This document shows positions 19,875 through 32,110 of a stretch of DNA of 64,000 nucleotides, in pieces. Source of the DNA: a virus. How positions within the stretch are numbered: position 1 is the first letter of the stretch; each line of letters opens with the position of its first letter. The position numbers and the translations under genes are program-made. A model generated the notes under the pieces. That model did not search any database. It had not been told where the DNA came from and was given only the letters and a program-made list of their open reading frames with translations. The stretch covers positions 62,001 to 126,000 of IMG/VR virus record IMGVR_UViG_3300023179_000025. One strand, written 5' to 3'.

Positions 19875-20585
19875 ATGGCTAAGATTCAAAATCTTTTTAA
19901 TGATATATTAAATGATACAATATCTGAGGGGACGAATAATATATATATTACAGATTATCCATTATTAGTATTAAGTGCATGTAATTACAGGTTAAAACAA
20001 GAAGATCCTGAATTTAATTCTAATTCTTTACTAGGCAATATTATTATAAATCATGTAACAGATATTGATATAGAGTTTGCAAATAAAATTGGTGACTACT
20101 ATAGTAAAAAATTAATGTTACTTAAATTAAAAGGTAAAGAGTTGACAAAGTTTCGCAAAGAATTAATTACTTTTTTACATGACAATTTTAACCATCAAGA
20201 TGGTAGGTACCATACCCCTGAGAAATTTGCAGGTATGGCTTATAAATTACCTTATTTTTACACATATGACACAACATTAGATATGTTATTTGATTTGAAA
20301 AGTATTCCATATAAGCCTTTTAAAGGTGTTAAGCAATTAAAGTTTGTTACAAAACTTTTTACATCAAGAAAACATTGGGGAAATATTATAGAATATTGGT
20401 TTGTAGATATTGACAATAATAAATATCTTTTAGACTTTAACAAAGAAAATATGTTATGTAGTTTATTAGAAAAGGTAATTGAAAAAAATCAAATTATAGT
20501 ATCAGGTGTATTTGGTGTAAATAGGAAAGACTATGAGTTTTTTGTACCAAGCAAATATACAATGGACTTCAAAAATATTATTTAA
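19875..20585 (+). CDS. hypothetical protein (236 aa)
   Basis: Unrecognised soluble protein with predicted helical N-terminal half (VTDIDIEFANKIGDYYSKK) and a beta-rich C-terminal half. It contains PYKPFKGVKQ, a local echo of the KPFKGYK motif of the 9.7-10.5 kb proteins. Its last eight bases overlap the end of the convergent gene on the minus strand. Confidence 0.55.
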   Translation: MAKIQNLFNDILNDTISEGTNNIYITDYPLLVLSACNYRLKQEDPEFNSNSLLGNIIINHVTDIDIEFANKIGDYYSKKLMLLKLKGKELTKFRKELITFLHDNFNHQDGRYHTPEKFAGMAYKLPYFYTYDTTLDMLFDLKSIPYKPFKGVKQLKFVTKLFTSRKHWGNIIEYWFVDIDNNKYLLDFNKENMLCSLLEKVIEKNQIIVSGVFGVNRKDYEFFVPSKYTMDFKNII

Positions 20586-21336
20586 ATTTTTTGTTATCTT
20601 TATCAACTGCTTTAAATAAAGAAATATTAAGCCCCAATTGTTTAGTAAGTTTATTAAAACTTTTCACATCTTTAGGAAGACAGGTTCCACCGTATCCACG
20701 TAAATTTTTATTCACTTCTAAATAATCAGAAGTGGGTGTTCCTCTCAAAATATATGTGTCTTTTATTTTGCTATAATTTGAATTTAATTTTTTACAAATT
20801 TCATACATGCTATTAGCAAAAACTATTTTGGTAGCATTGTATACATTGGAATAATATTTTAGTATTTCTGCCTCAGTTGGTGTAAGACTTACTATGTTTT
20901 TTGGTAAGAACCCATGGCTGGCAACAATTTTTTTAAAAATTTCTTTTCTATGACACCCAATGGCAAGTAAATTGTGATTTATTATAAAATCTTTTTCAGC
21001 ATGAACTTCACGTAAAAATTCAGGAACAAAACAAATATTTAAATTGGTTTCTTTTATTAATTTTTCTGTAGTACCAGGTACTAAGGTAGACTTAATAGCT
21101 ATTATTCCATCAAAGGATATTTTTTGTAAATCTTTTAAAACATTTTTAATTATTTTGTCTGTATACTTATTACCTTTATGTGTAGGAACACAAATATAAA
21201 TAATTTCTGTTTTTTTTAAGGATTTAATATCAGTTTTGTATTTAATATCATGTACAATAACTTTATGACCTAGTAATGTGAAACCTTGTTTACATGCATT
21301 ACCTACAACACCAGCACCTATTATACCAATTTTCAT
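20578..21336 (-). CDS. short nucleotide-sugar dehydrogenase (UDP-glucose 6-dehydrogenase family)
   Basis: The N-terminal Rossmann motif is GIIGAGVVGNA. Catalytic features are IKSTLVPGT, FVPEFLREVHAE and the nucleophile Cys in GGTCLPKD. The family normally has about 400 residues with a C-terminal UDP-binding domain; this one is 252 and ends shortly after the central helix, so the third domain is missing. It would oxidise a UDP-hexose to the uronic acid if active. It is co-transcribed with the epimerase/decarboxylase (four-base overlap) and convergent with the 19875 gene. Confidence 0.8.
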   Translation of the reverse strand: MKIGIIGAGVVGNACKQGFTLLGHKVIVHDIKYKTDIKSLKKTEIIYICVPTHKGNKYTDKIIKNVLKDLQKISFDGIIAIKSTLVPGTTEKLIKETNLNICFVPEFLREVHAEKDFIINHNLLAIGCHRKEIFKKIVASHGFLPKNIVSLTPTEAEILKYYSNVYNATKIVFANSMYEICKKLNSNYSKIKDTYILRGTPTSDYLEVNKNLRGYGGTCLPKDVKSFNKLTKQLGLNISLFKAVDKDNKKFK

Positions 21337-22211
21337 AATGAGTCCAAAGTTAACTTTATCCCTTGTTCTAATGAAATTTTAGGTTTAAAATTAATTATTT
21401 TTTTTAGTTTGTTAGTATCACACAACCGTCTTGATACACTTCCAATAGGAGCATTATTAAGAATAAGATTTTTATTTATTTTTGCATATCTACAAATTAG
21501 TTCTGCAACTTCTTTAATTGTTCTTTCGTCACTGACCCCTATATTTATAATTTCATTATTACAATTTTGAGTTTCTAGAATATTTACAGTGGCATCAACA
21601 GCATCACTTACATACATAAAACTTCTTGTATTAGAGTGTCCGTACAAATTTAAATCTCCTTTTTTAATTCTGCCATAAAACTCTGGTATAAAGTGATTAA
21701 TTTGTCTTGGTCCATAAACATTATGATACCTCAATATAATAAAGTTTTGTTTTGTTTGATGATATGCAGCATTTACTTGTACCTCATTAGCAATTTTGCT
21801 AGCAGCATAGCTCCAGCGTGGATTAGTTACATCACTTATTGATAAAGGAACTTGTTCGTCTGTAGGAATTTTATAATTAAATGTATCAATTGTGCCTGCA
21901 TAGGTTTCACAGCTACTTGAAAATATAAATTTTTCTATCTTACCTGCATATCTATCAAGTAAATATTGAGTTGGCAATAAATTATTTCTAATTACATCAA
22001 AAGGACGCTGGTAAAAAAATTTGGTACCATTTAATGCTGCTAAATGCACAACAATTTCAACATCGGGTAAATTCTTAACATTTTCCCAATTAGATAAATC
22101 AAGACCTGTTTTAATATCTGCCTTGTGTAAATTATATCCTAAATTTTCTAATTTGTCACACAGATGACTTCCAATGAATCCACAACTGCCTGTAACTAAA
22201 ATTGATTTCAT
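21333..22211 (-). CDS. NAD-dependent sugar epimerase/dehydratase (SDR family)
   Basis: The Rossmann motif GSCGFIGSHL is at residues 7-16. The catalytic set is Ser in FSSSCETYAG and YAASK for Tyr/Lys. It then follows the extended SDR pattern (RYHNVYGPRQ). The relatives are UDP-glucose 4-epimerases and UDP-glucuronate decarboxylases. With the neighbouring dehydrogenase it could produce an unusual UDP-sugar, perhaps for virion or host surface glycans. Exact substrate cannot be read from sequence. Confidence 0.8.
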   Translation of the reverse strand: MKSILVTGSCGFIGSHLCDKLENLGYNLHKADIKTGLDLSNWENVKNLPDVEIVVHLAALNGTKFFYQRPFDVIRNNLLPTQYLLDRYAGKIEKFIFSSSCETYAGTIDTFNYKIPTDEQVPLSISDVTNPRWSYAASKIANEVQVNAAYHQTKQNFIILRYHNVYGPRQINHFIPEFYGRIKKGDLNLYGHSNTRSFMYVSDAVDATVNILETQNCNNEIINIGVSDERTIKEVAELICRYAKINKNLILNNAPIGSVSRRLCDTNKLKKIINFKPKISLEQGIKLTLDSL

Positions 22212-22256: not shown

Positions 22257-22892
22257 ATGAAACCTAAGATAAAAATATTTTTAAATCATCCTGAGTGTAG
22301 TATAGAGTGTGGTGCAGGAATGTACCATGCTCTTAATAAAGATTTTCGTATAGACTTTTTTACAAAAGACGATATTAAACCCAAATTATTTAGAAACTTA
22401 GAAATTATTGCCTTCCCTGGCGGTATTGGTGATAGTGATAAATTTGATAAAATTCTTAAACACAACCAAGATTACATTATTGAATTTGTAAAAAATAATG
22501 GAAGATACTTAGGTATTTGTATGGGTGCTTATTGGGCGGGTAGTCATTATTTTAATATACTTAAAAATGTAGAACCTGTACAATATATTAAAAGACCTAG
22601 GGCAAATATTAAAAGAAGTTACGGTACCACAACAAAAATAAATTGGCTAGGTAACGAACATAAAATGTATTTTTATGATGGCTGTGCATTGATTGGCAAT
22701 GAAAGTAAATTTAAAGTAATAGCAAGATATAGTAATAAAGATCCAATGGCTATCATTCAGAAAAACATTGGGTTAATAGGTTGTCATCCTGAAAGTATGC
22801 CAACTTGGTATAATAAAAAATATCTTTCAGATAAATGGCACAATTACCATCATCATTATTTGTTATTAGACTTCACAAAACGATTATTGTAA
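22257..22892 (+). CDS. class I glutamine amidotransferase-like protein (BPL_N-type)
   Basis: The nucleophile elbow GICMGAY places a Cys at about residue 88, and GCHPES provides the His/Glu of a GATase-like triad. The segment IAFPGGIGD is the preceding oxyanion-type loop. Such folds are seen in the N-terminal domain of biotin-protein ligase-like proteins (BPL_N) and glutamine amidotransferases. It has 211 residues and no synthetase partner domain. It could hydrolyse an amide or peptide; the substrate is unknown. Confidence 0.65.
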   Translation: MKPKIKIFLNHPECSIECGAGMYHALNKDFRIDFFTKDDIKPKLFRNLEIIAFPGGIGDSDKFDKILKHNQDYIIEFVKNNGRYLGICMGAYWAGSHYFNILKNVEPVQYIKRPRANIKRSYGTTTKINWLGNEHKMYFYDGCALIGNESKFKVIARYSNKDPMAIIQKNIGLIGCHPESMPTWYNKKYLSDKWHNYHHHYLLLDFTKRLL

Positions 22893-22920
22893 TACTTTTG
22901 TAATAATAATATGATAGTAT
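22887..22920 (+). promoter_or_regulatory. Pho-box-like promoter of phoX
   Basis: TTGTAATA occurs at 22887-22894 and 22898-22905, a direct repeat of period 11. This is the spacing of PhoB boxes (7-mer, 4-base spacer, 7-mer) although the 7-mer differs from CTGTCAT. TAGTAT at 22915-22920 is a possible -10 box ten bases later. It lies upstream of the alkaline phosphatase gene, where host PhoB control would be expected. Confidence 0.5.
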
Positions 22921-22957
22921 ATATGTAAATACGACAACATATAAAAGGAGAATGCGT

Positions 22958-25168
22958 ATGTTACAACAAGTAGTACAAGAAGAAAACACTTCTAACAATG
23001 AGCATATTAATGACATTGTAAATCAAATATTACAAGATCCCAAACGCCGAACTTTTTTAAAAACAGGTTCGGCGTTTTTAACTGCTGCCACAGGCGCAAC
23101 TTTAGCAGGTTGTGCTAGTGGAGATGACACCTTAACTGTGTCACATCTCAATTTTCCTGCTGTAGCTAAAAATATAGCAGATAAAATTACATTACCACCA
23201 GGTTATCAATATTCAATAGTACATGCTACCGGAGATAGACTGACTAGTAGTGTAGGTGCTTATACCAATAAAGGAACTGAAACTGATGATTGGTCTAACA
23301 GAGTAGGTGACCATCATGATGGTGTAGAATTATTTCACCTAGATAGTGCAGGTAAACGTACAAATCAAATGACTGATCGTGCTTTATTAGTTATGAATCA
23401 TGAAAGTTCAGCAGACGCACACTTCTTTCACCCAAATGGACAAACCAGTAATGGAACTACCGGCAAAAAGTACGACCAATTTGGAAGTTGGGATTTAGGG
23501 GTTCGTCCTGGACTTGAAGCATTAAAAGAAATAAATCATCACGGCGTTAGTGTTGTTGAAATTAATAAGAGTAGCAATGGTTGGTCTTATAAATTAGATA
23601 GCGGGTTTAATAGACGTATTACTCCTCAAACAGTAATGAAAATTGCTGGACCTGTTAATGAACTTAGTAACATTAAAGCATTATTAGCAACCAAATATGA
23701 TCCAACAGGTGCTACAAGTCGTGGTACATTAAACAATTGTGGTACAGGCATTACACCATGGGGTACTTTCTTAACATGCGAAGAAAATTGGGCTACCTAT
23801 TTCGCTATGCCTAAAGGTAGCGTTGCTCCAGATGCACGTATGGCGCAGAGCCGTGCTAGATATGGTGTTCGTAACGCAGCTATTGCCGATACTGCCACAA
23901 CAAGTAATACACAAGGATGGCACACTGTAACCGACATGCCCGATACCGCACAAAGATTTAGTCGTTGGGATGTAAGTGTAAAGGGAGCTACAGACAAAGA
24001 TGATTTTCGTAATGAACCACATACGTTTGGTTACATCGTAGAAATTGATCCAACTAACCCAACAAGTCAACCAGTAAAGCGTATTGCTTTAGGTCGTACA
24101 GCACATGAAGCAGCAGTATATGGAAAATTAGTTGCAGGTCAACCAGTAACTTTTTACATGGGATGTGACAGTCGAAATGAGTATATCTATAAGTGGGTAA
24201 GTAATCAACCATGGAATCCAGCCGATGCTAACGGTGGTTTGGCAGCAGGTGACAAATATTTAAATGATGGCAAACTGTACGCAGCTAAATTTAATAATGA
24301 TGGAACTGGTGTATGGTTAGAATTAAGCATTACAAATCCTCTTATTGCAGGATATTCAACTTTTGTATTTAAAAACCAAGCTGAAGTTTATGTTTTTACT
24401 AGACTTGCTGCTGACGCAGTTGGTGCCACCAAAATGGATCGCCCAGAATGGGGTGCTGTAAATCCTGCTAATGGTGAAGTGTATTTTGCTTTAACAAATA
24501 ATAGTTCTGCAAATCGTACGCCTTCTACAGTTAATGCAGCTAACCCACGTAGTTATGCTGATCCAGATGGCAAAAAAGGTTCAGGCAATCCTAATGGGCA
24601 CATTATTCGTTGGCGTGAAGAAACTAGTGGATTTAAGTGGGATATTTTCTTATTTGGTTCAGAAGAGGATAATTCTCAAAGTAATGTCAGCAAACTGACT
24701 GCCAATAATAGTTTTAGTAGCCCAGATGGATTATGGTTTAGTCGTGCTACTGGCTTATGCTGGATTCAAACTGACGATGGTGCATATACTGATGAAGTTC
24801 ATAATCAATTACTTGTTGCTATCCCTGGTAAAGTTGGCGATGGTCAGGCAATTACAGTCAATAACAGTCTAAGTGGTGCTACTGGCACACAAGCAACATT
24901 TGTTGGTGCTGAATTAGGGGAAACTAAATTACGTAGATTCATGACTGGTCCTGCTGGTTGCGAAATTACTGGTATTACTGAATCAGCAGATGGTCGTGCT
25001 ATCTTTGTAAATGTTCAGCATCCTGGCGAAGATACTTCGGCAGCATTTTGGACAGGAGGAGCGCCACAAAGTCAATGGCCAGGTAATGCTAATTATGGGA
25101 TAACTGGTCGTCCTCGCTCAGCCACAATTTGTATTACAAGGGTTGACGGAGGCCTAATAGGCGTATAA
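22958..25168 (+). CDS. phoX: PhoX-type alkaline phosphatase, Tat-exported lipoprotein
   Basis: PhoX is a calcium/iron-dependent phosphatase that releases phosphate from organic esters outside the cytoplasm. The N terminus has a twin-arginine signal (RRTFLK, residues 30-35) followed by a hydrophobic stretch and lipobox LAGC (49-52). The diagnostic PhoX/DUF839 segment is NCGTGITPWGTFLTCEEN. Length is 736 residues. ATG 22958 is chosen over 22952 because AAAGGAG ends seven bases before it. It is followed 28 bases later by pstS, so both are probably induced together in phosphate-starved hosts. Confidence 0.92.
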   Translation: MLQQVVQEENTSNNEHINDIVNQILQDPKRRTFLKTGSAFLTAATGATLAGCASGDDTLTVSHLNFPAVAKNIADKITLPPGYQYSIVHATGDRLTSSVGAYTNKGTETDDWSNRVGDHHDGVELFHLDSAGKRTNQMTDRALLVMNHESSADAHFFHPNGQTSNGTTGKKYDQFGSWDLGVRPGLEALKEINHHGVSVVEINKSSNGWSYKLDSGFNRRITPQTVMKIAGPVNELSNIKALLATKYDPTGATSRGTLNNCGTGITPWGTFLTCEENWATYFAMPKGSVAPDARMAQSRARYGVRNAAIADTATTSNTQGWHTVTDMPDTAQRFSRWDVSVKGATDKDDFRNEPHTFGYIVEIDPTNPTSQPVKRIALGRTAHEAAVYGKLVAGQPVTFYMGCDSRNEYIYKWVSNQPWNPADANGGLAAGDKYLNDGKLYAAKFNNDGTGVWLELSITNPLIAGYSTFVFKNQAEVYVFTRLAADAVGATKMDRPEWGAVNPANGEVYFALTNNSSANRTPSTVNAANPRSYADPDGKKGSGNPNGHIIRWREETSGFKWDIFLFGSEEDNSQSNVSKLTANNSFSSPDGLWFSRATGLCWIQTDDGAYTDEVHNQLLVAIPGKVGDGQAITVNNSLSGATGTQATFVGAELGETKLRRFMTGPAGCEITGITESADGRAIFVNVQHPGEDTSAAFWTGGAPQSQWPGNANYGITGRPRSATICITRVDGGLIGV

Positions 25169-25196
25169 AATATCAATCACACACAAAGGAAAAACA

Positions 25197-26201
25197 ATGA
25201 AAAAATTTATATTGGCTCTTGCGACCATATTTTTCGCAATTTCAGCACAGGCACAAATTACAGGTGCAGGTGCTACATTCCCTTATCCGATCTATGCTAA
25301 ATGGGCAGAAGCCTATCAAAAGCAAACAAGCGTCGGTCTTAATTATCAAAGCATTGGTAGTTCGGGGGGAATCCGTCAAATTAATGCCAAGACTGTAACA
25401 TTTGGAGCAACAGATGCGCCAGTTAAAGGTGAAGACCTTGATAAGAACGGTCAAGTTCAATTTCCTGTTATCATTGGCGGTACTGTGCCCGTTATTAATC
25501 TTGACGGTTTTAAGCCAAGTGAACTTCGCATTACAGGTGCTGTCTTGGCAGAAGTTTTTATGGGAAACATTGTTAAATGGAATGATCCGAAATTATCACA
25601 ATTAAACCCAGGTAAAAATTTACCTGATCTTAATATAACGGTAGTGCATCGTGCTGATGGTTCTGGTACAACATTTAATTTTACTGATTATCTAACTGAA
25701 GTAAGTCCTGCTTGGAAGGACAAGGTTGGTAAAGGTGCAGCAGTTAAATGGCCTGCTAATAGTTCTGTTGGTGGAAAAGGTAACGAAGGTGTTGCAGCTA
25801 ATGTTAATAGAGTTAAAGGTGCAATTGGATATGTTGAATATGCTTATGTTAAAAAGAATAACATGAATTATATGAAACTACAAAACAAAGCAGGTAACTT
25901 TGTTGACCCTGATGATACAACATTTGCTGCCGCAGCAGCAGGTGCAGATTGGTTCTCAGTTCCAGGAATGGGATTGAGTATTGTAAATCAAGGCGGCAAA
26001 GATACTTGGCCCATAACAACAGCTAGCTTTATTATAATGCATAAAGATCCTGCTGATAAAAAGGCTAGCCAAGAAGTCATCAAGTTCTTTGACTGGGCAT
26101 TTAGGAATGGTGCCAAAATGAGTGCGGATCTTGATTATGTTCATTTACCAGAGAAATTACAGAATGAAATACGTACAAAAGTATGGACTCAAATTAAGTA
26201 A
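25197..26201 (+). CDS. pstS: phosphate-binding periplasmic protein PstS
   Basis: It binds phosphate in the periplasm and delivers it to the host PstCAB importer. A Sec signal (MKKFILALATIFFAISAQAQ) is followed by ITGAGATFPYPIYAKW, SSGGIRQI, FGATDAPV and RADGSGTTFNF, which hold the phosphate ligands. The length of 334 and sequence style match proteobacterial PstS. No PstC, A or B genes are present, so it must work with the host transporter, as known for cyanophage pstS. Confidence 0.95.
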   Translation: MKKFILALATIFFAISAQAQITGAGATFPYPIYAKWAEAYQKQTSVGLNYQSIGSSGGIRQINAKTVTFGATDAPVKGEDLDKNGQVQFPVIIGGTVPVINLDGFKPSELRITGAVLAEVFMGNIVKWNDPKLSQLNPGKNLPDLNITVVHRADGSGTTFNFTDYLTEVSPAWKDKVGKGAAVKWPANSSVGGKGNEGVAANVNRVKGAIGYVEYAYVKKNNMNYMKLQNKAGNFVDPDDTTFAAAAAGADWFSVPGMGLSIVNQGGKDTWPITTASFIIMHKDPADKKASQEVIKFFDWAFRNGAKMSADLDYVHLPEKLQNEIRTKVWTQIK

Positions 26202-26219
26202 TGTAATAATACTGTAAAC
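26201..26219 (+). promoter_or_regulatory. second Pho-box-like direct repeat
   Basis: TGTAA at 26202-26206 and again at 26213-26217, again with period 11, just after pstS and upstream of the PlcP/Agt unit. No convincing -10 box follows, so it is weaker than the phoX site. Confidence 0.35.
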
Positions 26220-26246
26220 TAATCAAAAGTTAAATTTTGTAAATAG

Positions 26247-26273
26247 TTATAGAGAATCACAAATTCTCTATAA
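26247..26273 (+). terminator. perfect 11-bp hairpin after pstS
   Basis: TTATAGAGAAT (26247-26257) pairs with ATTCTCTATAA (26263-26273) around CACAA. There is no T run after it, so it may be an mRNA-end stabiliser, a processing signal or a weak terminator between pstS and the following genes. Confidence 0.5.
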
Positions 26274-26294
26274 CCCACATCAAGGAGTCACAAA

Positions 26295-26519
26295 ATGAAA
26301 CTAGAAATGAGAGCTTGGGATTTAGACGTAAAATTAGAATTACAGGATGATGATGCAGTAGACCAATTACAAGTTTTGGAAGTTGTTAAAAATTTATTAG
26401 ACACACTTTCACAATTTGAAAAAGTCAATGTAGTAATTAAACAAATTGAAGAAACAACAGAAGAATTAGATAATAATTCTGATAACGTTGAAGCAATTAC
26501 TCATACAACAGGTTACTAA
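26295..26519 (+). CDS. hypothetical protein in the lipid-remodelling unit (74 aa)
   Basis: A small acidic helical protein (VVKNLLDTLSQFEKVNVVIKQ) with no signal peptide or membrane segment. AAGGAG lies ahead of the start. It sits between pstS and the PlcP-like gene. I do not recognise it. Confidence 0.55.
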   Translation: MKLEMRAWDLDVKLELQDDDAVDQLQVLEVVKNLLDTLSQFEKVNVVIKQIEETTEELDNNSDNVEAITHTTGY

Positions 26520-26535
26520 AAGGTCCCCCAATGAA

Positions 26536-27306
26536 ATGGTTTATAATGCTATCTTTATATCAGATGTACACTTGGGCACAAAAGGATGTAAAGCCGAAGA
26601 ATTAATTAATTTTTTGAAAAACAACACCGCTTCAAAGTTATATCTTATAGGTGATATATTAGACGGCTGGAAAATACAACAAAATAAATGGGTCTGGAAA
26701 CAGACCCATTCCAATGTAATCCGTAGAATTTTAGGTCATGCTAAAAATGGTACAGAAGTTTTCTATGCTATAGGAAATCATGATGAATTTATACGTCCTT
26801 TACTTCCATATAAGATAAGTTTTGGCAAAATTAAACTTGCTAATCAGTTTACACATAATGGTATAGATGGGAAGAAATATTTAGTTGTTCACGGAGATTT
26901 ATTTGATGGAATAACAAGGCTCGCTCCTTGGATTAGTTTTTTGGGGGATAGAGCCTATGACATGCTTCTTTCACTTAATACCACATTTAATCGTATTCGC
27001 CATCGTTTTGGGTTCGGCTATTGGAGTCTTAGCAAATATCTTAAGCACAGAGTCAAACGGGCTATGGATTTTATGTTTAGATTTGAGAATAATATGGCTG
27101 ATTATTGTATTAAGCGTGGGTATGATGGAGTTATATGTGGTCATATACATTATGCCGAAATTAAAACAATAAAGGGTATAACATATATGAATGATGGTGA
27201 TTGGGTAGAAAGTTGTAGCGCACTAGTAGAAAATGTCAATGGAAGTTGGGAAATTATATATTGGACAAAAAAGCAAGATGTGGATATTGTTCCTAGTGGT
27301 AGTTAA
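26536..27306 (+). CDS. plcP: PlcP-like phospholipase C (metallophosphoesterase)
   Basis: The metal-binding motifs of calcineurin-type phosphoesterases are all present: SDVHLG (residues 9-14), GDILDGW (39-45), GNHDEF, HGDLFD and GHIHY. The segments SDVHLGTKGC, GFGYWSLS and MNDGDWVESC match the PlcP group, often annotated as UDP-2,3-diacylglucosamine pyrophosphatase, which removes head groups from phospholipids in phosphate-starved bacteria. It has 256 residues. The neighbouring glycosyltransferase matches the PlcP-Agt lipid-renovation pair. LpxH is the alternative, but context and motifs favour PlcP. Confidence 0.75.
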   Translation: MVYNAIFISDVHLGTKGCKAEELINFLKNNTASKLYLIGDILDGWKIQQNKWVWKQTHSNVIRRILGHAKNGTEVFYAIGNHDEFIRPLLPYKISFGKIKLANQFTHNGIDGKKYLVVHGDLFDGITRLAPWISFLGDRAYDMLLSLNTTFNRIRHRFGFGYWSLSKYLKHRVKRAMDFMFRFENNMADYCIKRGYDGVICGHIHYAEIKTIKGITYMNDGDWVESCSALVENVNGSWEIIYWTKKQDVDIVPSGS

Positions 27307-27463
27307 TACATTTGATACGAATGATGTACCTGGTAGAATCCAATTACAGTTTAAGGATCAACAAAGTTGTGAATTCGCACTGGCTAATATGACAAGTTAT
27401 GTTAAATTTCCTTGGTTTAAAGTAGAGGGTAAATGTGAAAAAAATATTAATAATAACAGATAA
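27278..27463 (+). CDS. small hypothetical protein between plcP and agt (61 aa)
   Basis: It overlaps the end of the PlcP-like gene by 29 bases and the start of the glycosyltransferase gene by 29. It has a hydrophobic start (MWILFLVVVNTF) and two Cys spaced as in small phage proteins (QSCEFA, GKCEKN). The tight double overlap supports it, though it could be spurious. Confidence 0.45.
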   Translation: MWILFLVVVNTFDTNDVPGRIQLQFKDQQSCEFALANMTSYVKFPWFKVEGKCEKNINNNR

Positions 27464-28430
27464 TTTACAGGATCAAATAAATGGTGTGGTTACCACTTAC
27501 AAAAATCTTGAAGCGTGTGCGGTTCGTGACAACTATAACATTGTTTATATTACTCCCGATGAGTTCCGCCACTTTGATTGCCCTATCTATAACGAAGTCA
27601 AGATTGCCTTTCCGAGGAAAATGGGCGAGAAGATTGAGGAGATATCTCCACATCATATCCACATCGCCACAGAAGGTCCTGTGGGTCTGTGGGCTAGAGC
27701 ATATCTTACAAAACATAATTATAATTACAATACTGCTTATCATACTAAATTTCCTGAAGGATTACATACCTTGGTTGGACTTCCTGAGTCTATTACTTGG
27801 CGCTATATAAAATGGTTTCATAAACATACAGGAAAAGTTCTTACAACCACTAATTCTATGGTTGAACAATTACAACAAAAAGGATTAAAAAATCTTGTAC
27901 CATGGACTAGAGGTGTTGATAGAGAAATATTTTCTTCTAAATTACGAACAAAAACAGCGGAAAAACTTAATCTTGTCTGTGTAAGTCGAATTAGTAAAGA
28001 AAAAAACTTAGACGATTTTTGTAGTATCGATTATTTTCATGCACATAAAATAATGGTAGGTGATGGTCCTTATCGTAGGGAATTAGAAAAGAAATATCCT
28101 AACGTAGAATTTGTAGGATTTAAAACAGGAGTAGAATTGGCTACATATTTTGCAAACGCCGATGTATTTGTTTTTCCAAGTCGTTGGGAAACATTTGGTA
28201 TCGTTATGATTGAGGCTATGGCGTGTGGTACACCTGTTGCGGCATATCCCTGTCAAGGACCACTGGATGTTGTAGATCATGGGATAACAGGGTTCTTACG
28301 AGATAATCTTAAACAGGCTATTACAGAATGTTTAACATTAGATAGGTATACAGTTGAAAAGCATAGTTTAAAATACAGCTGGGATAAAGCTTGGGAAATT
28401 TTTAAAAATAATTTAATACCATTAAAGTAA
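27435..28430 (+). CDS. agt: Agt-like glycolipid glycosyltransferase (GT4)
   Basis: The fold is GT4: N-terminal NGVVTTYKNLE and HIATEGPVGLWAR, a nucleotide-binding EX7E-like region with VFPSRWETFGIVMIEAMACG, and PYHTKFPE-type features (AYHTKFPEG). This pattern matches the Agt group that transfers sugar to diacylglycerol to make phosphate-free glycolipids, usually encoded beside plcP. It has 331 residues. GTG start at 27435 with GAGGG before it. Other GT4 mannosyltransferases look similar, so lipid specificity rests on adjacency to PlcP. Confidence 0.7.
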   Translation: MKKILIITDNLQDQINGVVTTYKNLEACAVRDNYNIVYITPDEFRHFDCPIYNEVKIAFPRKMGEKIEEISPHHIHIATEGPVGLWARAYLTKHNYNYNTAYHTKFPEGLHTLVGLPESITWRYIKWFHKHTGKVLTTTNSMVEQLQQKGLKNLVPWTRGVDREIFSSKLRTKTAEKLNLVCVSRISKEKNLDDFCSIDYFHAHKIMVGDGPYRRELEKKYPNVEFVGFKTGVELATYFANADVFVFPSRWETFGIVMIEAMACGTPVAAYPCQGPLDVVDHGITGFLRDNLKQAITECLTLDRYTVEKHSLKYSWDKAWEIFKNNLIPLK

Positions 28431-28517: not shown

Positions 28518-29111
28518 ATGAAAACAGTTGGAGATGTACTTAAGCCTTTCGCAATGACAGGCGTAAAACCAGGAGCGTTAACCTTAGATAATGCTTTTGA
28601 AACAATCACAGAAAAATCTTTTGAAGGTAAGTGGAAAGTAATCGTTTACTATCCTAAAGATTTTACTTTTGTATGCCCCACAGAAATTGTAGCATATGAT
28701 AAACTTAACAGTGACTTTGCTGACCGTGATGCTGTATTATTAATTGGTAGCACAGATAATGAGTTTTGTAAATTAGCATGGCGTAATGCACATGAAGATT
28801 TGAAAAAAACTAATAGCTGGATGTTTGCTGATACAGCAAGAGAAGCAGATGAGAGTTATAACGTTGAAAGTGATAAATGGGAGCATAAGCTTCCAGAAGG
28901 TTTAGCTCAACAACTTGGTATTTTTTACAAACCTGCAGGAGCAGCATTAAGAGCTACATTTATTGTTGATCCTAATAATGTTATTCAACATGTTACTGTA
29001 AACAATTTAGATGTTGGTCGTAACCCAGATGAAACACTACGCATTTTAGATGCACTACAAACTGGTGAACTTTGCCCATGTAGTCGTCCAATAGGCGGTG
29101 AAACACTTTAA
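28518..29111 (+). CDS. ahpC: alkyl hydroperoxide reductase AhpC (peroxiredoxin)
   Basis: It reduces H2O2 and organic peroxides. The peroxidatic Cys53 is in FVCPTE, preceded by YYPKDFTF. The C-terminal CPCSRP (Cys186 and Cys188) supplies the resolving Cys, as in the AhpC type that is recycled by AhpD instead of AhpF. Length is 197. Start at ATG 28518 fits AAGGAG at 28506-28511. A gene for an AhpD-like protein follows with one small gene between. Confidence 0.92.
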   Translation: MKTVGDVLKPFAMTGVKPGALTLDNAFETITEKSFEGKWKVIVYYPKDFTFVCPTEIVAYDKLNSDFADRDAVLLIGSTDNEFCKLAWRNAHEDLKKTNSWMFADTAREADESYNVESDKWEHKLPEGLAQQLGIFYKPAGAALRATFIVDPNNVIQHVTVNNLDVGRNPDETLRILDALQTGELCPCSRPIGGETL

Positions 29112-29278
29112 TGTTTAAGTATGAAACTCTTTGGGATTTTTACAAAGTAAAATTTTTATTTCTTTTAATTTCTTTTGTAGTAGCAATAATTTTATCAAAC
29201 TATTTGTATAACCATGATAAAGATAAAAAGATGATTGAGTTTCATAAAACATTTATTAAAAAATATTATGGAGAATGA
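29111..29278 (+). CDS. small single-helix membrane protein (55 aa)
   Basis: It starts on the last base of the ahpC stop and ends ten bases inside ahpD. A hydrophobic segment at about residues 14-30 (FLFLLISFVVAIILSNY) predicts one transmembrane helix with a basic C-terminal tail. The tight fit between two functional partners suggests it is translated, perhaps tethering them to the membrane. Confidence 0.5.
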   Translation: MFKYETLWDFYKVKFLFLLISFVVAIILSNYLYNHDKDKKMIEFHKTFIKKYYGE

Positions 29279-29795
29279 GTTGAACTGGATAGATCAAATT
29301 AAAGCAAGCATTCCTGAACATTGTAAGGATAATAAACTTAACCTTGATAGTGTAATGAACCGTAGTGGTTTGGATGAGATAGATGCTCATGGGTGTGCGT
29401 TAGCCGCAGCGATATCTGCAGGCAATGGAGAATTAGCTTATGACATTCAATTAAATGGTCCTTTAAAAGGCACTAAAGAATCTGAGGCAGCAAAAACGGC
29501 AGCAGCGTTAATGGGTATTAATAATGTATTTTATCCATTTATTGAAATGTGTAATGATCCTGATTTAAAAGGATTGCCACCTGGATTGCGTATGAATGCT
29601 TATGCTAACCATGGCGGAGTCAGTAAAAAGCAATTTGAAATGTATGCGTTAGCAGCAAGTATTGTTGGTAAATGTCATTTTTGTGTAAAAAATCATTATG
29701 ACACATTAAAGAAAGAAGGTCTTACCGTTCAGCAATTACAAGCAATCGGTAAGATTGCTAGTGTAATTGCTAGTATTAATAAGATAGCAGTATAA
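29268..29795 (+). CDS. ahpD: AhpD-like alkylhydroperoxidase (carboxymuconolactone decarboxylase family)
   Basis: The redox motif is CHFC (Cys136, Cys139) followed by His143, in the segment GKCHFCVKNHYD, as in AhpD of mycobacteria. AhpD passes electrons to AhpC. It has 175 residues, the usual length. ATG 29268 is preferred to the upstream in-frame ATG at 29235 because homologues start just before the LNWIDQIKA-type helix. It is coupled to ahpC through the small gene between them. Confidence 0.85.
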   Translation: MENELNWIDQIKASIPEHCKDNKLNLDSVMNRSGLDEIDAHGCALAAAISAGNGELAYDIQLNGPLKGTKESEAAKTAAALMGINNVFYPFIEMCNDPDLKGLPPGLRMNAYANHGGVSKKQFEMYALAASIVGKCHFCVKNHYDTLKKEGLTVQQLQAIGKIASVIASINKIAV

Positions 29796-29933: not shown

Positions 29934-30611
29934 TCAAATTATATACCAATTACTTGAACCGCTATAAATCAAATGAACTGCTTGCCATGGAACTTCTATA
30001 ATATATTGTGTTTCACCATCAATAAATGATCCATCACTAGTGGTTATTGTAATTTTTCGATTACCTAAAGGTGGACCCATTTCAGCTTTTATAATAATTT
30101 CATCACAACCTGAAGGATTTGGGGGAAGTGTAACAGTAACCGGTCCATCACTATTAACGCCAATATAATAATCATCCATCGTAGCAGTGTAGTCTTGGTA
30201 AACCAAAACAGCTTGGCATTTGCAATCACACTGCCCAGGCGGTCCAATAGGTCCTGGAGGCCCTTGTTCACCAGGAGGGCCTGGCTCTCCAGCAGGTCCA
30301 GTCGAGCCTTGTGGGCCCTCAGGTCCAGGTGGTCCTGGTGGACCTTGTTCTCCAATTGGTCCAGGCGGACCTTCAGGACCTTGGGGTCCTGCTGGGCCTG
30401 GTGGTCCAGGGGGGCATTCATCGCATGGATCTCCTTTATCATTATTATTAATTACAATAGTATCATTACCTGGGCCAGTATTAATTGGAATTCTTCCGCC
30501 TGCTAATTGTAATTGAGCATGTTGTAACAGTTTTGGGTCTACTGGTTTACCCATACTCATAGTTAATAATGCCTGTTGCAATTCTACTAATCTTCTATCA
30601 TGTCCGTCCAT
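29934..30611 (-). CDS. collagen-like protein with Cys-framed triple-helix stretch (225 aa)
   Basis: Residues 69-127 are about 19 uninterrupted Gly-X-Y triplets rich in Pro, predicting a collagen triple helix. Cys63 and Cys66 precede and Cys128, 130 and 132 follow the stretch, which could lock three chains. The N-terminal part is helical and the C-terminal 90 residues are beta-rich with [15 protein letters not shown] and ending SSNWYII. Phage collagen-like proteins are typically trimeric fibre or decoration proteins. It is on the minus strand with a GAGGAT site. Confidence 0.8.
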
Positions 30612-31399: not shown

Positions 31400-32110
31400 T
31401 TATGTTTCCAAAGAATTTGCAAACACTGCGAGTTGTGTTCTATTTCTTAACCCATATTTGCGTAATATTGCACCCATGTGTAGTTTTACAGTGCTTTCAG
31501 CAATTTTTAATGTCTTTGCTATAACTTTATTAGTAGCACCACGTTTTGCTACCATTGTAAACACTTGTTTTTGCCTTGGCGTTAACTCTACTTCTGTACT
31601 TTTTTCTTTTTTTGATTTGCGTTTTAACATGTTTTGTATTGGTTTAGGTGTGCTTAAATCACCCGAAACTAATTTTATTTGATCCTCTACTAACATATCC
31701 ATTGTAAACTTATCACACATACTCATTTGTAAACCATCAACTAATTTGCTAATTTCTTTAATATCACTTATTTTTGACTCACTATTGGCACAGGCTAAAA
31801 TCTTAGTAGTTCGCTTTTTGGTTTTATCTTCATCAATAAACAATGTAGATATTGCTAAAATTTTCAATGTATTAATTAAAGCAATTGGGTCCCCGTGTTC
31901 AAAATTACTCAATTCATCAACATCAATAAGAATATAATCAACATCAAATTTTGGATCACTTAATTTTGGAAAAAGTGACTCAATATTTGGATAACTGCAA
32001 TAAGACGCATTGGGAATTTTTTCCTTTGCTAAAGGTATCCAAACATCGTAAAACATTCTGTCAGGATATTTGCCATTATTTACATAAACAATTTTTGTAG
32101 TATGGGGCAT
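31400..32110 (-). CDS. LuxR-type transcription regulator with degenerate receiver domain
   Basis: The C-terminal 65 residues form a GerE/LuxR helix-turn-helix: LTPRQKQVFTMVAKRG, then NKVIAKTLKIAESTVKLHMG and ILRKYGLRNRTQLAVFA. The N-terminal 140 residues resemble a response-regulator receiver (YILIDVDELS with an acidic pocket) though the canonical pattern is divergent. AAGGAA precedes the ATG. It is on the minus strand upstream of the coiled-coil and collagen-like genes and may control these or host genes. The 213 bases before it (32111-32323) hold no other gene; I see no confident promoter. Confidence 0.75.
   Translation of the reverse strand: MPHTTKIVYVNNGKYPDRMFYDVWIPLAKEKIPNASYCSYPNIESLFPKLSDPKFDVDYILIDVDELSNFEHGDPIALINTLKILAISTLFIDEDKTKKRTTKILACANSESKISDIKEISKLVDGLQMSMCDKFTMDMLVEDQIKLVSGDLSTPKPIQNMLKRKSKKEKSTEVELTPRQKQVFTMVAKRGATNKVIAKTLKIAESTVKLHMGAILRKYGLRNRTQLAVFANSLET

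What the first reader, a model, noticed from the sequence alone, without database searches (positions are those of the whole stretch)
22887..28430. Phage-borne phosphate-starvation and lipid-remodelling cassette (PhoX, PstS, PlcP-like, Agt-like)
Seen: a Tat-lipoprotein PhoX, a PstS, a metallophosphoesterase with PlcP-type motifs and a GT4 glycosyltransferase run in the same direction, with one small gene between pstS and plcP and another overlapping plcP and agt. Known: PlcP and Agt together strip phosphate head groups from membrane lipids and replace them with glycolipids in phosphate-starved marine and soil bacteria; cyanophages carry pstS and phoA-like genes. Inferred: this phage not only takes up phosphate but may mine the host membrane for it while keeping the envelope supplied with glycolipid, freeing phosphate for a large genome. 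I know of no described phage with the PlcP-Agt step.
Basis: partly seen in the sequence, partly recalled or inferred. Interest (0 to 1): 0.92.

Follow-up and report, generated by a model that had tools for sequence, protein, structure and literature searches.

The report
Phage cassette remodelling host membrane lipids
A giant freshwater-type phage carries a phosphate-starvation cassette, with binding sites for the host's own low-phosphate switch, that includes a phospholipid-stripping enzyme and a glycolipid-making enzyme; the same pair recurs in many other giant phages, so viruses may rebuild the membranes of the bacteria they infect.

Summary
At 22952-28430 a T4-like jumbo-phage fragment encodes PhoX, PstS, a PlcP-type phosphoesterase and an Agt-derived GT4 glycosyltransferase. 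Trees put the phosphoesterase among bacterial PlcP, far from LpxH. The GT4 sits inside the PlcP-linked Agt clade (99/99), beside SAR11/SAR86 Agt, apart from other GT4s.

New findings:
(1) A perfect Pho box lies 47 nt before phoX. The box is conserved in ten relatives, and a second one precedes the plcP unit.
(2) A 61-aa protein, which I call sm2, bridges plcP and agt. It has two invariant cysteines and follows viral plcP in 80/80 sm2 loci; bacteria lack it.
(3) A glycosyltransferase follows in 68/71 viral plcP loci: 50 GT4, 18 an unrelated GT2.
(4) A phage Agt subclade swapped the catalytic Asp for Glu once. That change cost the SAR11 enzyme >90% of activity, so the sugar donor, or even the activity, is uncertain.
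(5) The cassette occupies a variable slot after uvsX. Modules also lie in 320-370 kb phages.

Membrane phosphorus would pay for only about 0.4-1.3 jumbo genomes, so phosphate-free membrane or an altered envelope is at least as likely a benefit. No lipid was measured. I found no paper describing this.

The parts
22887..22904 (+). Pho box TTGTAAT-ACTT-TTGTAAT, 47 nt before the phoX ATG
   Evidence: Only zero-mismatch match to YTGTMAYN4YTGTMAY in 64 kb, both strands; score 13.8 against a null 99.9th percentile of 12.2; box plus downstream block conserved in the ten relatives aligned
22952..25168 (+). phoX, Tat-exported lipoprotein alkaline phosphatase
   Evidence: PF05787 410.7 bits over 67-692; RRTFLK and LAGC in the sequence
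25197..26201 (+). pstS, periplasmic phosphate-binding protein
   Evidence: NF008171 397.6 bits and TIGR00975 366.7 bits, both over cut-off; PHROG 5385; 74% identical to a genome of the Undibacterium order
26201..26218 (+). second Pho-box-like site ATGTAAT-AATA-CTGTAAA upstream of the sm1-plcP-sm2-agt unit
   Evidence: Score 12.2 = null 99.9th percentile; a site at the same distance (89-94 nt before sm1) in most relatives
26295..26519 (+). sm1, small conserved ORF of unknown function (74 aa)
   Evidence: Recurs beside PlcP in related phages at 37-76% identity; no family match
26536..27306 (+). plcP, PlcP-type calcineurin-like phosphoesterase (256 aa)
   Evidence: 46-59% identical to bacterial PlcP, mostly Agt-linked; tree; metal-ligand motifs D10/H12, D40, N81/H82, H119, H203/H205 invariant
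27278..27463 (+). sm2, 61-aa phage-specific partner overlapping plcP and agt
   Evidence: 53-row alignment with invariant W2, D16, P18, C31, K43, C53; 80/80 best viral relatives sit directly behind PlcP; AF2 pLDDT 91, strand-strand-helix-strand
27435..28430 (+). agt-derived GT4 glycosyltransferase (331 aa, GTG start), Glu-for-Asp variant at the catalytic position (E252)
   Evidence: PF13692/PF00534; tree inside PlcP-linked Agt clade; residue test
28518..29111 (+). AhpC-type peroxiredoxin; frequent neighbour of viral PlcP, part of the cassette or a passenger
   Evidence: TIGR03137 107.7 bits, under its cut-off; near PlcP in L004, L025, L027, L055, L064, L069 and others
29268..29795 (+). AhpD-type carboxymuconolactone-decarboxylase-family protein
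   Evidence: PF02627 45 bits, TIGR00778 over cut-off; same neighbourhood recurrence

Best explanation
This is a phosphate-starvation cassette of a T4-like jumbo phage, probably switched on by the host's PhoB through Pho boxes the phage carries. During infection of a phosphate-starved host, PhoX releases phosphate from organic esters in the periplasm and PstS feeds it to the host's PstCAB transporter. PlcP removes phosphate-containing head groups from membrane phospholipids, leaving diacylglycerol. The Agt-derived GT4 (in sister phages an unrelated GT2) glycosylates the diacylglycerol so that the membrane is kept up with phosphate-free glycolipid. sm2 is an obligate phage partner of PlcP, perhaps an adaptor that docks or couples PlcP and the transferase. 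Shown by sequence: gene content, family placement, conserved active-site residues, overlap-coupled order, recurrence with a transferase swap, conserved Pho boxes, location in a variable slot of the phage genome. Inferred: PhoB control, both enzyme activities, the glycolipid's identity, the role of sm2, and the benefit to the phage.
For: PlcP: trees; LpxH-model score 40.5 bits, like bacterial PlcP (31-50) and unlike true LpxH (240-337). Agt: nested in the PlcP-linked Agt clade, sister to SAR11/SAR86; ten of eleven experimentally essential residues of the SAR11 enzyme kept. Linkage: 68/71 viral PlcP loci followed by GT4 or GT2, none of either in 850 kb of UvsX-centred control loci; sm2 behind PlcP in 80/80; the GT2 also matches the GT21 lipid-glucosyltransferase Pfam model over its cut-off. 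Regulation. Phage nature: TerL and UvsX in the same records as PlcP, up to 367 kb. Mobility: cassette absent from the uvsX-to-PHROG1250 slot in close relatives. Precedent: cyanophage pstS under host PhoBR control.
Against: No expression, lipid or enzyme data. The catalytic Asp of Agt is Glu here, and D256E cost the SAR11 enzyme over 90% of its activity. Only 39% of viral PlcP loci have a strong Pho box within 300 nt (2.4% expected), and the cultured Mosig phage has none of this type. The lipid phosphorus released is small against the need of a jumbo genome. The likely host order often encodes its own PlcP (4 of 7 genomes).
Confidence: 0.74

Rival explanations
1. The enzymes do make glycolipid, but the main benefit is a changed envelope (blocking superinfection, resisting host or competitor attack, holding the cell together in a long infection), with phosphate relief secondary.
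For: The PlcP-GT module is far commoner than PhoX (12 viral PhoX loci in one scan, 80+ PlcP loci). Two unrelated transferases fill the same place, and a fatty-acid desaturase follows in some. Phosphate budget. Published: glycolipids protect bacteria from polymyxin (PMC8528852); aminolipid loss lowers phage attachment (PMC9938194).
Against: Pho boxes and co-occurrence with PhoX/PstS tie the unit to phosphate in this phage.
Confidence: 0.3
2. The phosphoesterase is an LpxH-like or other phosphoesterase and the GT4 a capsule/LPS transferase; the pair modifies surface polysaccharide. Sugar-nucleotide genes (epimerase, UDP-sugar dehydrogenase) lie just upstream on the other strand.
For: Nearest solved structures are LpxH; nucleotide-sugar genes at 20578-22211.
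Against: LpxH model far below cut-off and LpxH a separate, fully supported clade; GT4 inside the PlcP-linked Agt clade; linkage matches bacterial plcP-agt operons (58 of 80).
Confidence: 0.06
3. The Agt variant lost activity or now uses another sugar or acceptor; only PlcP acts, and diacylglycerol goes to host enzymes.
For: Single D-to-E change on one phage branch (100/97 support); D256E in the SAR11 enzyme was nearly dead; W replaces T beside it.
Against: Every other essential residue nearly invariant in ~100 viral sequences and the gene kept in dozens of contigs, so it is under selection; Glu is the residue at this position in MshA, another GT4 enzyme.
Confidence: 0.15
4. The region is host DNA mis-assembled or mis-binned into a viral record.
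For: PhoX, PstS, PlcP and Agt all have bacterial homologues.
Against: TerL, UvsX, helicase and primase flank it in the same record; close phages share both sides and the order; similar modules in 320-370 kb phage contigs; phage-specific sm2 and phage-only Agt clade.
Confidence: 0.01

Closest known systems
PlcP-Agt membrane lipid remodelling of bacteria (Phaeobacter MED193, Pelagibacter HTCC7211, Pseudomonas aeruginosa; PMC4796936, PMC8231724, PMC8528852)
   Same: Same two enzyme lineages, adjacent in the same order, Pho box upstream, catalytic residues conserved except one
   Different: In a phage; with sm2 between the enzymes; Agt carries Glu at the catalytic Asp position; joined to PhoX and PstS; other phages replace Agt by a GT2
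Phosphate genes of cyanophages (pstS, phoA, under host PhoBR; PMC10976474)
   Same: Phage-borne PstS and alkaline phosphatase with a Pho box for the host regulator
   Different: PhoX instead of PhoA, a proteobacterial-type Pho box, and an added lipid-remodelling step not reported there
Pelagibacter phage Mosig EXVC030M (MT647606)
   Same: Cultured phage with PstS beside a 48.5% identical PlcP
   Different: Annotated as UDP-2,3-diacylglucosamine hydrolase; no Agt; its small overlapping ORF did not match sm2; no Pho box of this type
Terrestrial phage phosphorus-acquisition genes (PMC10987575)
   Same: Phage-borne phosphorus genes as a class
   Different: No PlcP, phospholipase, glycosyltransferase or lipid term in its text
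Rak2/CBB/Atu_ph07-like jumbo phages
   Same: UvsX 64-69% identical
   Different: No PlcP or PhoX hit in those deposited genomes

Membership tests
PlcP phospholipase C | Falls inside bacterial PlcP, outside LpxH | tested here: met
   Tree; LpxH one clade at 100; caution: long branches
PlcP phospholipase C | Calcineurin-type metal-binding motifs intact | tested here: met
   D10, H12, D40, N81, H82, H119, H203, H205 invariant in 23 sequences
PlcP phospholipase C | Operon with a lipid glycosyltransferase, Pho box upstream | tested here: met
PlcP phospholipase C | Hydrolyses phospholipids to diacylglycerol; low-phosphate induction | not testable with these tools
   Needs enzyme, lipid and transcript assays
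LpxH (UDP-2,3-diacylglucosamine diphosphatase) | Score over the TIGR01854/NF003743 cut-offs | tested here: not met
   40.5 of 190.35 bits; 46.3 of 134 bits; true LpxH 240-337 bits
Agt (DAG glycosyltransferase, GT4) | Inside the PlcP-linked Agt clade | tested here: met
   (99/99 with SAR11/SAR86 Agt); SqdX and Mgs not sampled
Agt (DAG glycosyltransferase, GT4) | Donor-site and catalytic residues G16, G82, G85, H104, R190, K195, T257, F258, G259, E264 (GTcp numbering) | tested here: met
   All conserved: window G17, G81, G84, H103, R185, K190, T253, F254, G255, E260
Agt (DAG glycosyltransferase, GT4) | Catalytic Asp256 | tested here: not met
   E252 in the window; E in 92% of viral, D in 52/53 bacterial sequences. 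Therefore called Agt-derived, not filed as a proven Agt
Agt (DAG glycosyltransferase, GT4) | Makes glycosyl-diacylglycerol | not testable with these tools
   Needs enzyme assay or lipidomics
PhoX | Full-length PF05787 and Tat signal | tested here: met
   and sequence
PstS | Over the NCBIfam PstS cut-off | tested here: met
Host Pho regulon | Two CTGTNAT-like repeats 11 nt apart upstream of the operon | tested here: met
Host Pho regulon | PhoB binding and low-phosphate induction | not testable with these tools
   Needs EMSA and transcript data

The most novel reading that the evidence does not exclude
Jumbo phages run their own version of membrane remodelling: a PlcP tied to a phage-only partner protein (sm2) and exchangeable transferases, of which one GT4 subclade changed its catalytic residue, so infected cells acquire a phage-specified, possibly new glycolipid membrane under host PhoB control.
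Probability: 0.35. Interest if true: 0.92.

Novelty: new variant of a known kind. Interest (0 to 1): 0.8.

Why it matters
Phage phosphate genes known so far bring phosphate in. This one would spare phosphate by rebuilding the host membrane, and the module is widespread (at least several hundred viral contigs encode a PlcP relative). If true, lipid make-up in phosphorus-poor waters is partly set by viruses, infected cells should carry a glycolipid signature that can be looked for, and gene annotations now reading 'UDP-2,3-diacylglucosamine hydrolase' in phages are wrong. It also gives a clean enzymology question: what a single Asp-to-Glu change and a small obligate partner do to a lipid glycosyltransferase system.

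Tried and rejected
PDB fold search with the sm2 model gave nothing (best E 0.34), so sm2's function stays open. The PlcP fold search only returned the superfamily (LpxH first, 18-20% identity). Simple Pho-box counting over the window is uninformative at two mismatches (30 found, 34 expected); only the exact match and its conservation in relatives carry weight. NCBIfam names for the GT4 are all far below cut-off, so names were not used. The HMM-based count of Agt behind bacterial PlcP (36/70) is an undercount from the frame and overlap limits; the tblastn count (58/80) is used instead. A gene resembling sm2 in Mosig: the overlapping small ORF there has a different sequence. Host contamination was considered and rejected. 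SqdX and mycoplasma-type Mgs references could not be fetched, so Agt was compared only with 24 GT4 rows from eight bacterial genomes.

Full report
What is there. The window is 64 kb of a 137,248-bp IMG/VR virus record, 33.7% G+C. It carries T4-type terminase, gp32-like SSB, UvsX, UvsW-like helicase, primase and DnaB. UvsX is 64-69% identical to those of jumbo phages of 337-490 kb such as Phosso, Vibrio 2.275.O, Atu_ph07 and CBB, so the record is probably part of a jumbo genome (inference). On the + strand follow phoX 22952-25168, pstS 25197-26201, a 74-aa ORF (sm1) 26295-26519, a metallophosphoesterase 26536-27306, a 61-aa ORF (sm2) 27278-27463, a GT4 glycosyltransferase 27435-28430, then ahpC-like and ahpD-like genes.

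The phosphoesterase is of the PlcP lineage. It scores 40.5 bits on the LpxH model (cut-off 190.35). In ten bacterial genomes true LpxH scored 240-337 bits and PlcP-lineage proteins 31-50. A profile of PlcP gives true LpxH 18-55 bits and bacterial PlcP 415-463. The tree puts all phage and bacterial PlcP on one side and LpxH on the other with full support, the viral sequences nested among bacterial ones (long branches make details uncertain). All metal-site motifs are intact. The AF2 model (pLDDT 80, weak in the helical insert) has LpxH as nearest solved fold at 18-20% identity, which shows superfamily only.

The glycosyltransferase is of the Agt lineage. In 58 of 80 bacterial PlcP loci the PlcP gene is accompanied by a homologue of it. 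The viral proteins form one clade (100/96), joined with Pelagibacter and SAR86 Agt (99/99), inside PlcP-linked bacterial Agt and apart from 24 other GT4 rows of the same genomes. Ten of eleven residues whose alanine mutants were inactive in the SAR11 enzyme GTcp (PMC8231724) are conserved. The exception is the catalytic Asp256: bacteria have D in 52 of 53, the window and 92% of viral sequences have E (motif WETFG instead of TDTFG). The viral sequences that keep D (L016, L030, L033, L041, L046, L047, L068, L081) lie outside one supported subclade (100/97) that holds the window, so the change most simply happened once within phages. In GTcp D256E cost over 90% of activity, while MshA naturally uses Glu there. 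I therefore call the protein Agt-derived and leave its donor open.

The pair belongs together. Of 71 with enough downstream sequence, 50 carry an Agt-type GT4 and 18 a GT2 of about 238 aa behind PlcP; three carry neither. Eighty UvsX-centred viral loci (850 kb) carry none of the three. In the reverse scan with Agt, nearly all of the 80 loci have PlcP upstream. The GT2 matches PF00535 and, over its cut-off, PF13506 (glycosyltransferase family 21); in L404 and L427 a fatty-acid desaturase follows. Two unrelated transferases in one slot suggest that glycosylation of the PlcP product is what is selected (inference).

sm2. The small overlapping gene is real: 73 distinct homologues among these loci, six invariant residues including two cysteines, more changes at third codon positions, and a confident small fold (pLDDT 91) without PDB match. 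A profile scan found 474 viral relatives, and all 80 best loci have PlcP directly upstream, 35 also Agt. None was detected behind bacterial PlcP. It is therefore a phage partner of PlcP more faithful than Agt itself; an adaptor or regulator role is a guess. Many viral loci, however, have Agt directly joined to PlcP without sm2.

Regulation. The only exact match to YTGTMAYN4YTGTMAY on either strand of 64 kb is TTGTAATACTTTTGTAAT at 22887-22904, just before phoX. Ten relatives carry (C/T)TGT(A/C)ATAATTCTGTAAT 53-73 nt before phoX, inside a conserved block of about 45 nt while the sequence further upstream does not align. A second site, 26201-26218, precedes sm1-plcP and has counterparts at the same distance in most relatives. 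Across 79 viral PlcP loci, 39% have a strong box within 300 nt upstream, against 2.4% of random stretches. Cyanophages are known to use host PhoBR in this way (PMC10976474).

Mobility and host. Close relatives (L257, L259, L260, L261, L265, L269, L273, L278) keep TerL-gp32-UvsX and PHROG1250-UvsW but have other DNA, or much less, between UvsX and PHROG1250, where the window carries the cassette. Modules also lie in other phage contigs, of which those of 323-367 kb have TerL and UvsX in the same record. PstS is up to 74% and PhoX up to 59% identical to one genome of the order that holds Undibacterium, which suggests, not proves, such a host. Four of seven such genomes have their own PlcP.

What it gains. 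In Phaeobacter and Dokdonia, phosphorus starvation lowered lipid phosphorus by 0.27 and 0.91 million atoms per cell (PMC4796936). A 350-kb genome holds 0.7 million, so remodelling pays for about 0.4-1.3 genomes. A 3-Mb host chromosome would pay for about 8.6. Keeping the membrane growing without phosphate, or changing the envelope, is at least as likely a benefit as genome synthesis.

Novelty. Paper searches for plcP with phage, lipid and auxiliary-gene terms found nothing; the Mosig announcement and a pelagiphage gene survey do not mention it. Among deposited phage records five have a PlcP relative and none has the PlcP-Agt pair in these searches. The library lacks most subscription papers, so absence is not proof.

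Noticed in passing
window 20578-22211 (-): A 252-aa UDP-glucose-dehydrogenase-like protein (N-terminal and central domains only) and an NAD-dependent sugar epimerase directly upstream; they could supply UDP-glucuronate to the transferase, but lie on the other strand and are not consistently linked to PlcP elsewhere.
   Followed up: partly
window 22257-22892: A class-I glutamine-amidotransferase/BPL_N-like protein before phoX whose homologues sit near PlcP in many other phage loci; role unknown.
   Followed up: partly
window 28518-29795: AhpC-like and AhpD-like genes recur near PlcP in other phage contigs; the AhpC protein is below the AhpC cut-off and may be a distinct phage peroxiredoxin group.
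   Followed up: partly
L404:6105-6806, L427:4244-4969: Fatty-acid desaturase genes just after the PlcP-sm2-GT2 unit in phage contigs (L404 lies in a 353-kb contig): further membrane-lipid genes.
   Followed up: partly
L084:3799-5705 (MT836169, human faeces): PlcP relative (41%) overlapping a 372-aa glycosyltransferase-like ORF of another type; the record is marked unverified and may be bacterial.
   Followed up: no
window 29934-30611 (-): Collagen-like repeat protein, probably tail fibre, on the opposite strand beside the cassette.
   Followed up: no
window 31400-32110 (-): Protein with a LuxR/NarL-type helix-turn-helix C terminus, resembling a response regulator; only weak PHROG sigma-factor matches.
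   Followed up: no
L104, L105: Solimonas genomes with two PlcP genes in tandem.
   Followed up: no
G017:73835-75403, G020:530-1834: Terminase matches interrupted by several in-frame stops, possibly introns, inteins or frameshifts.
   Followed up: no
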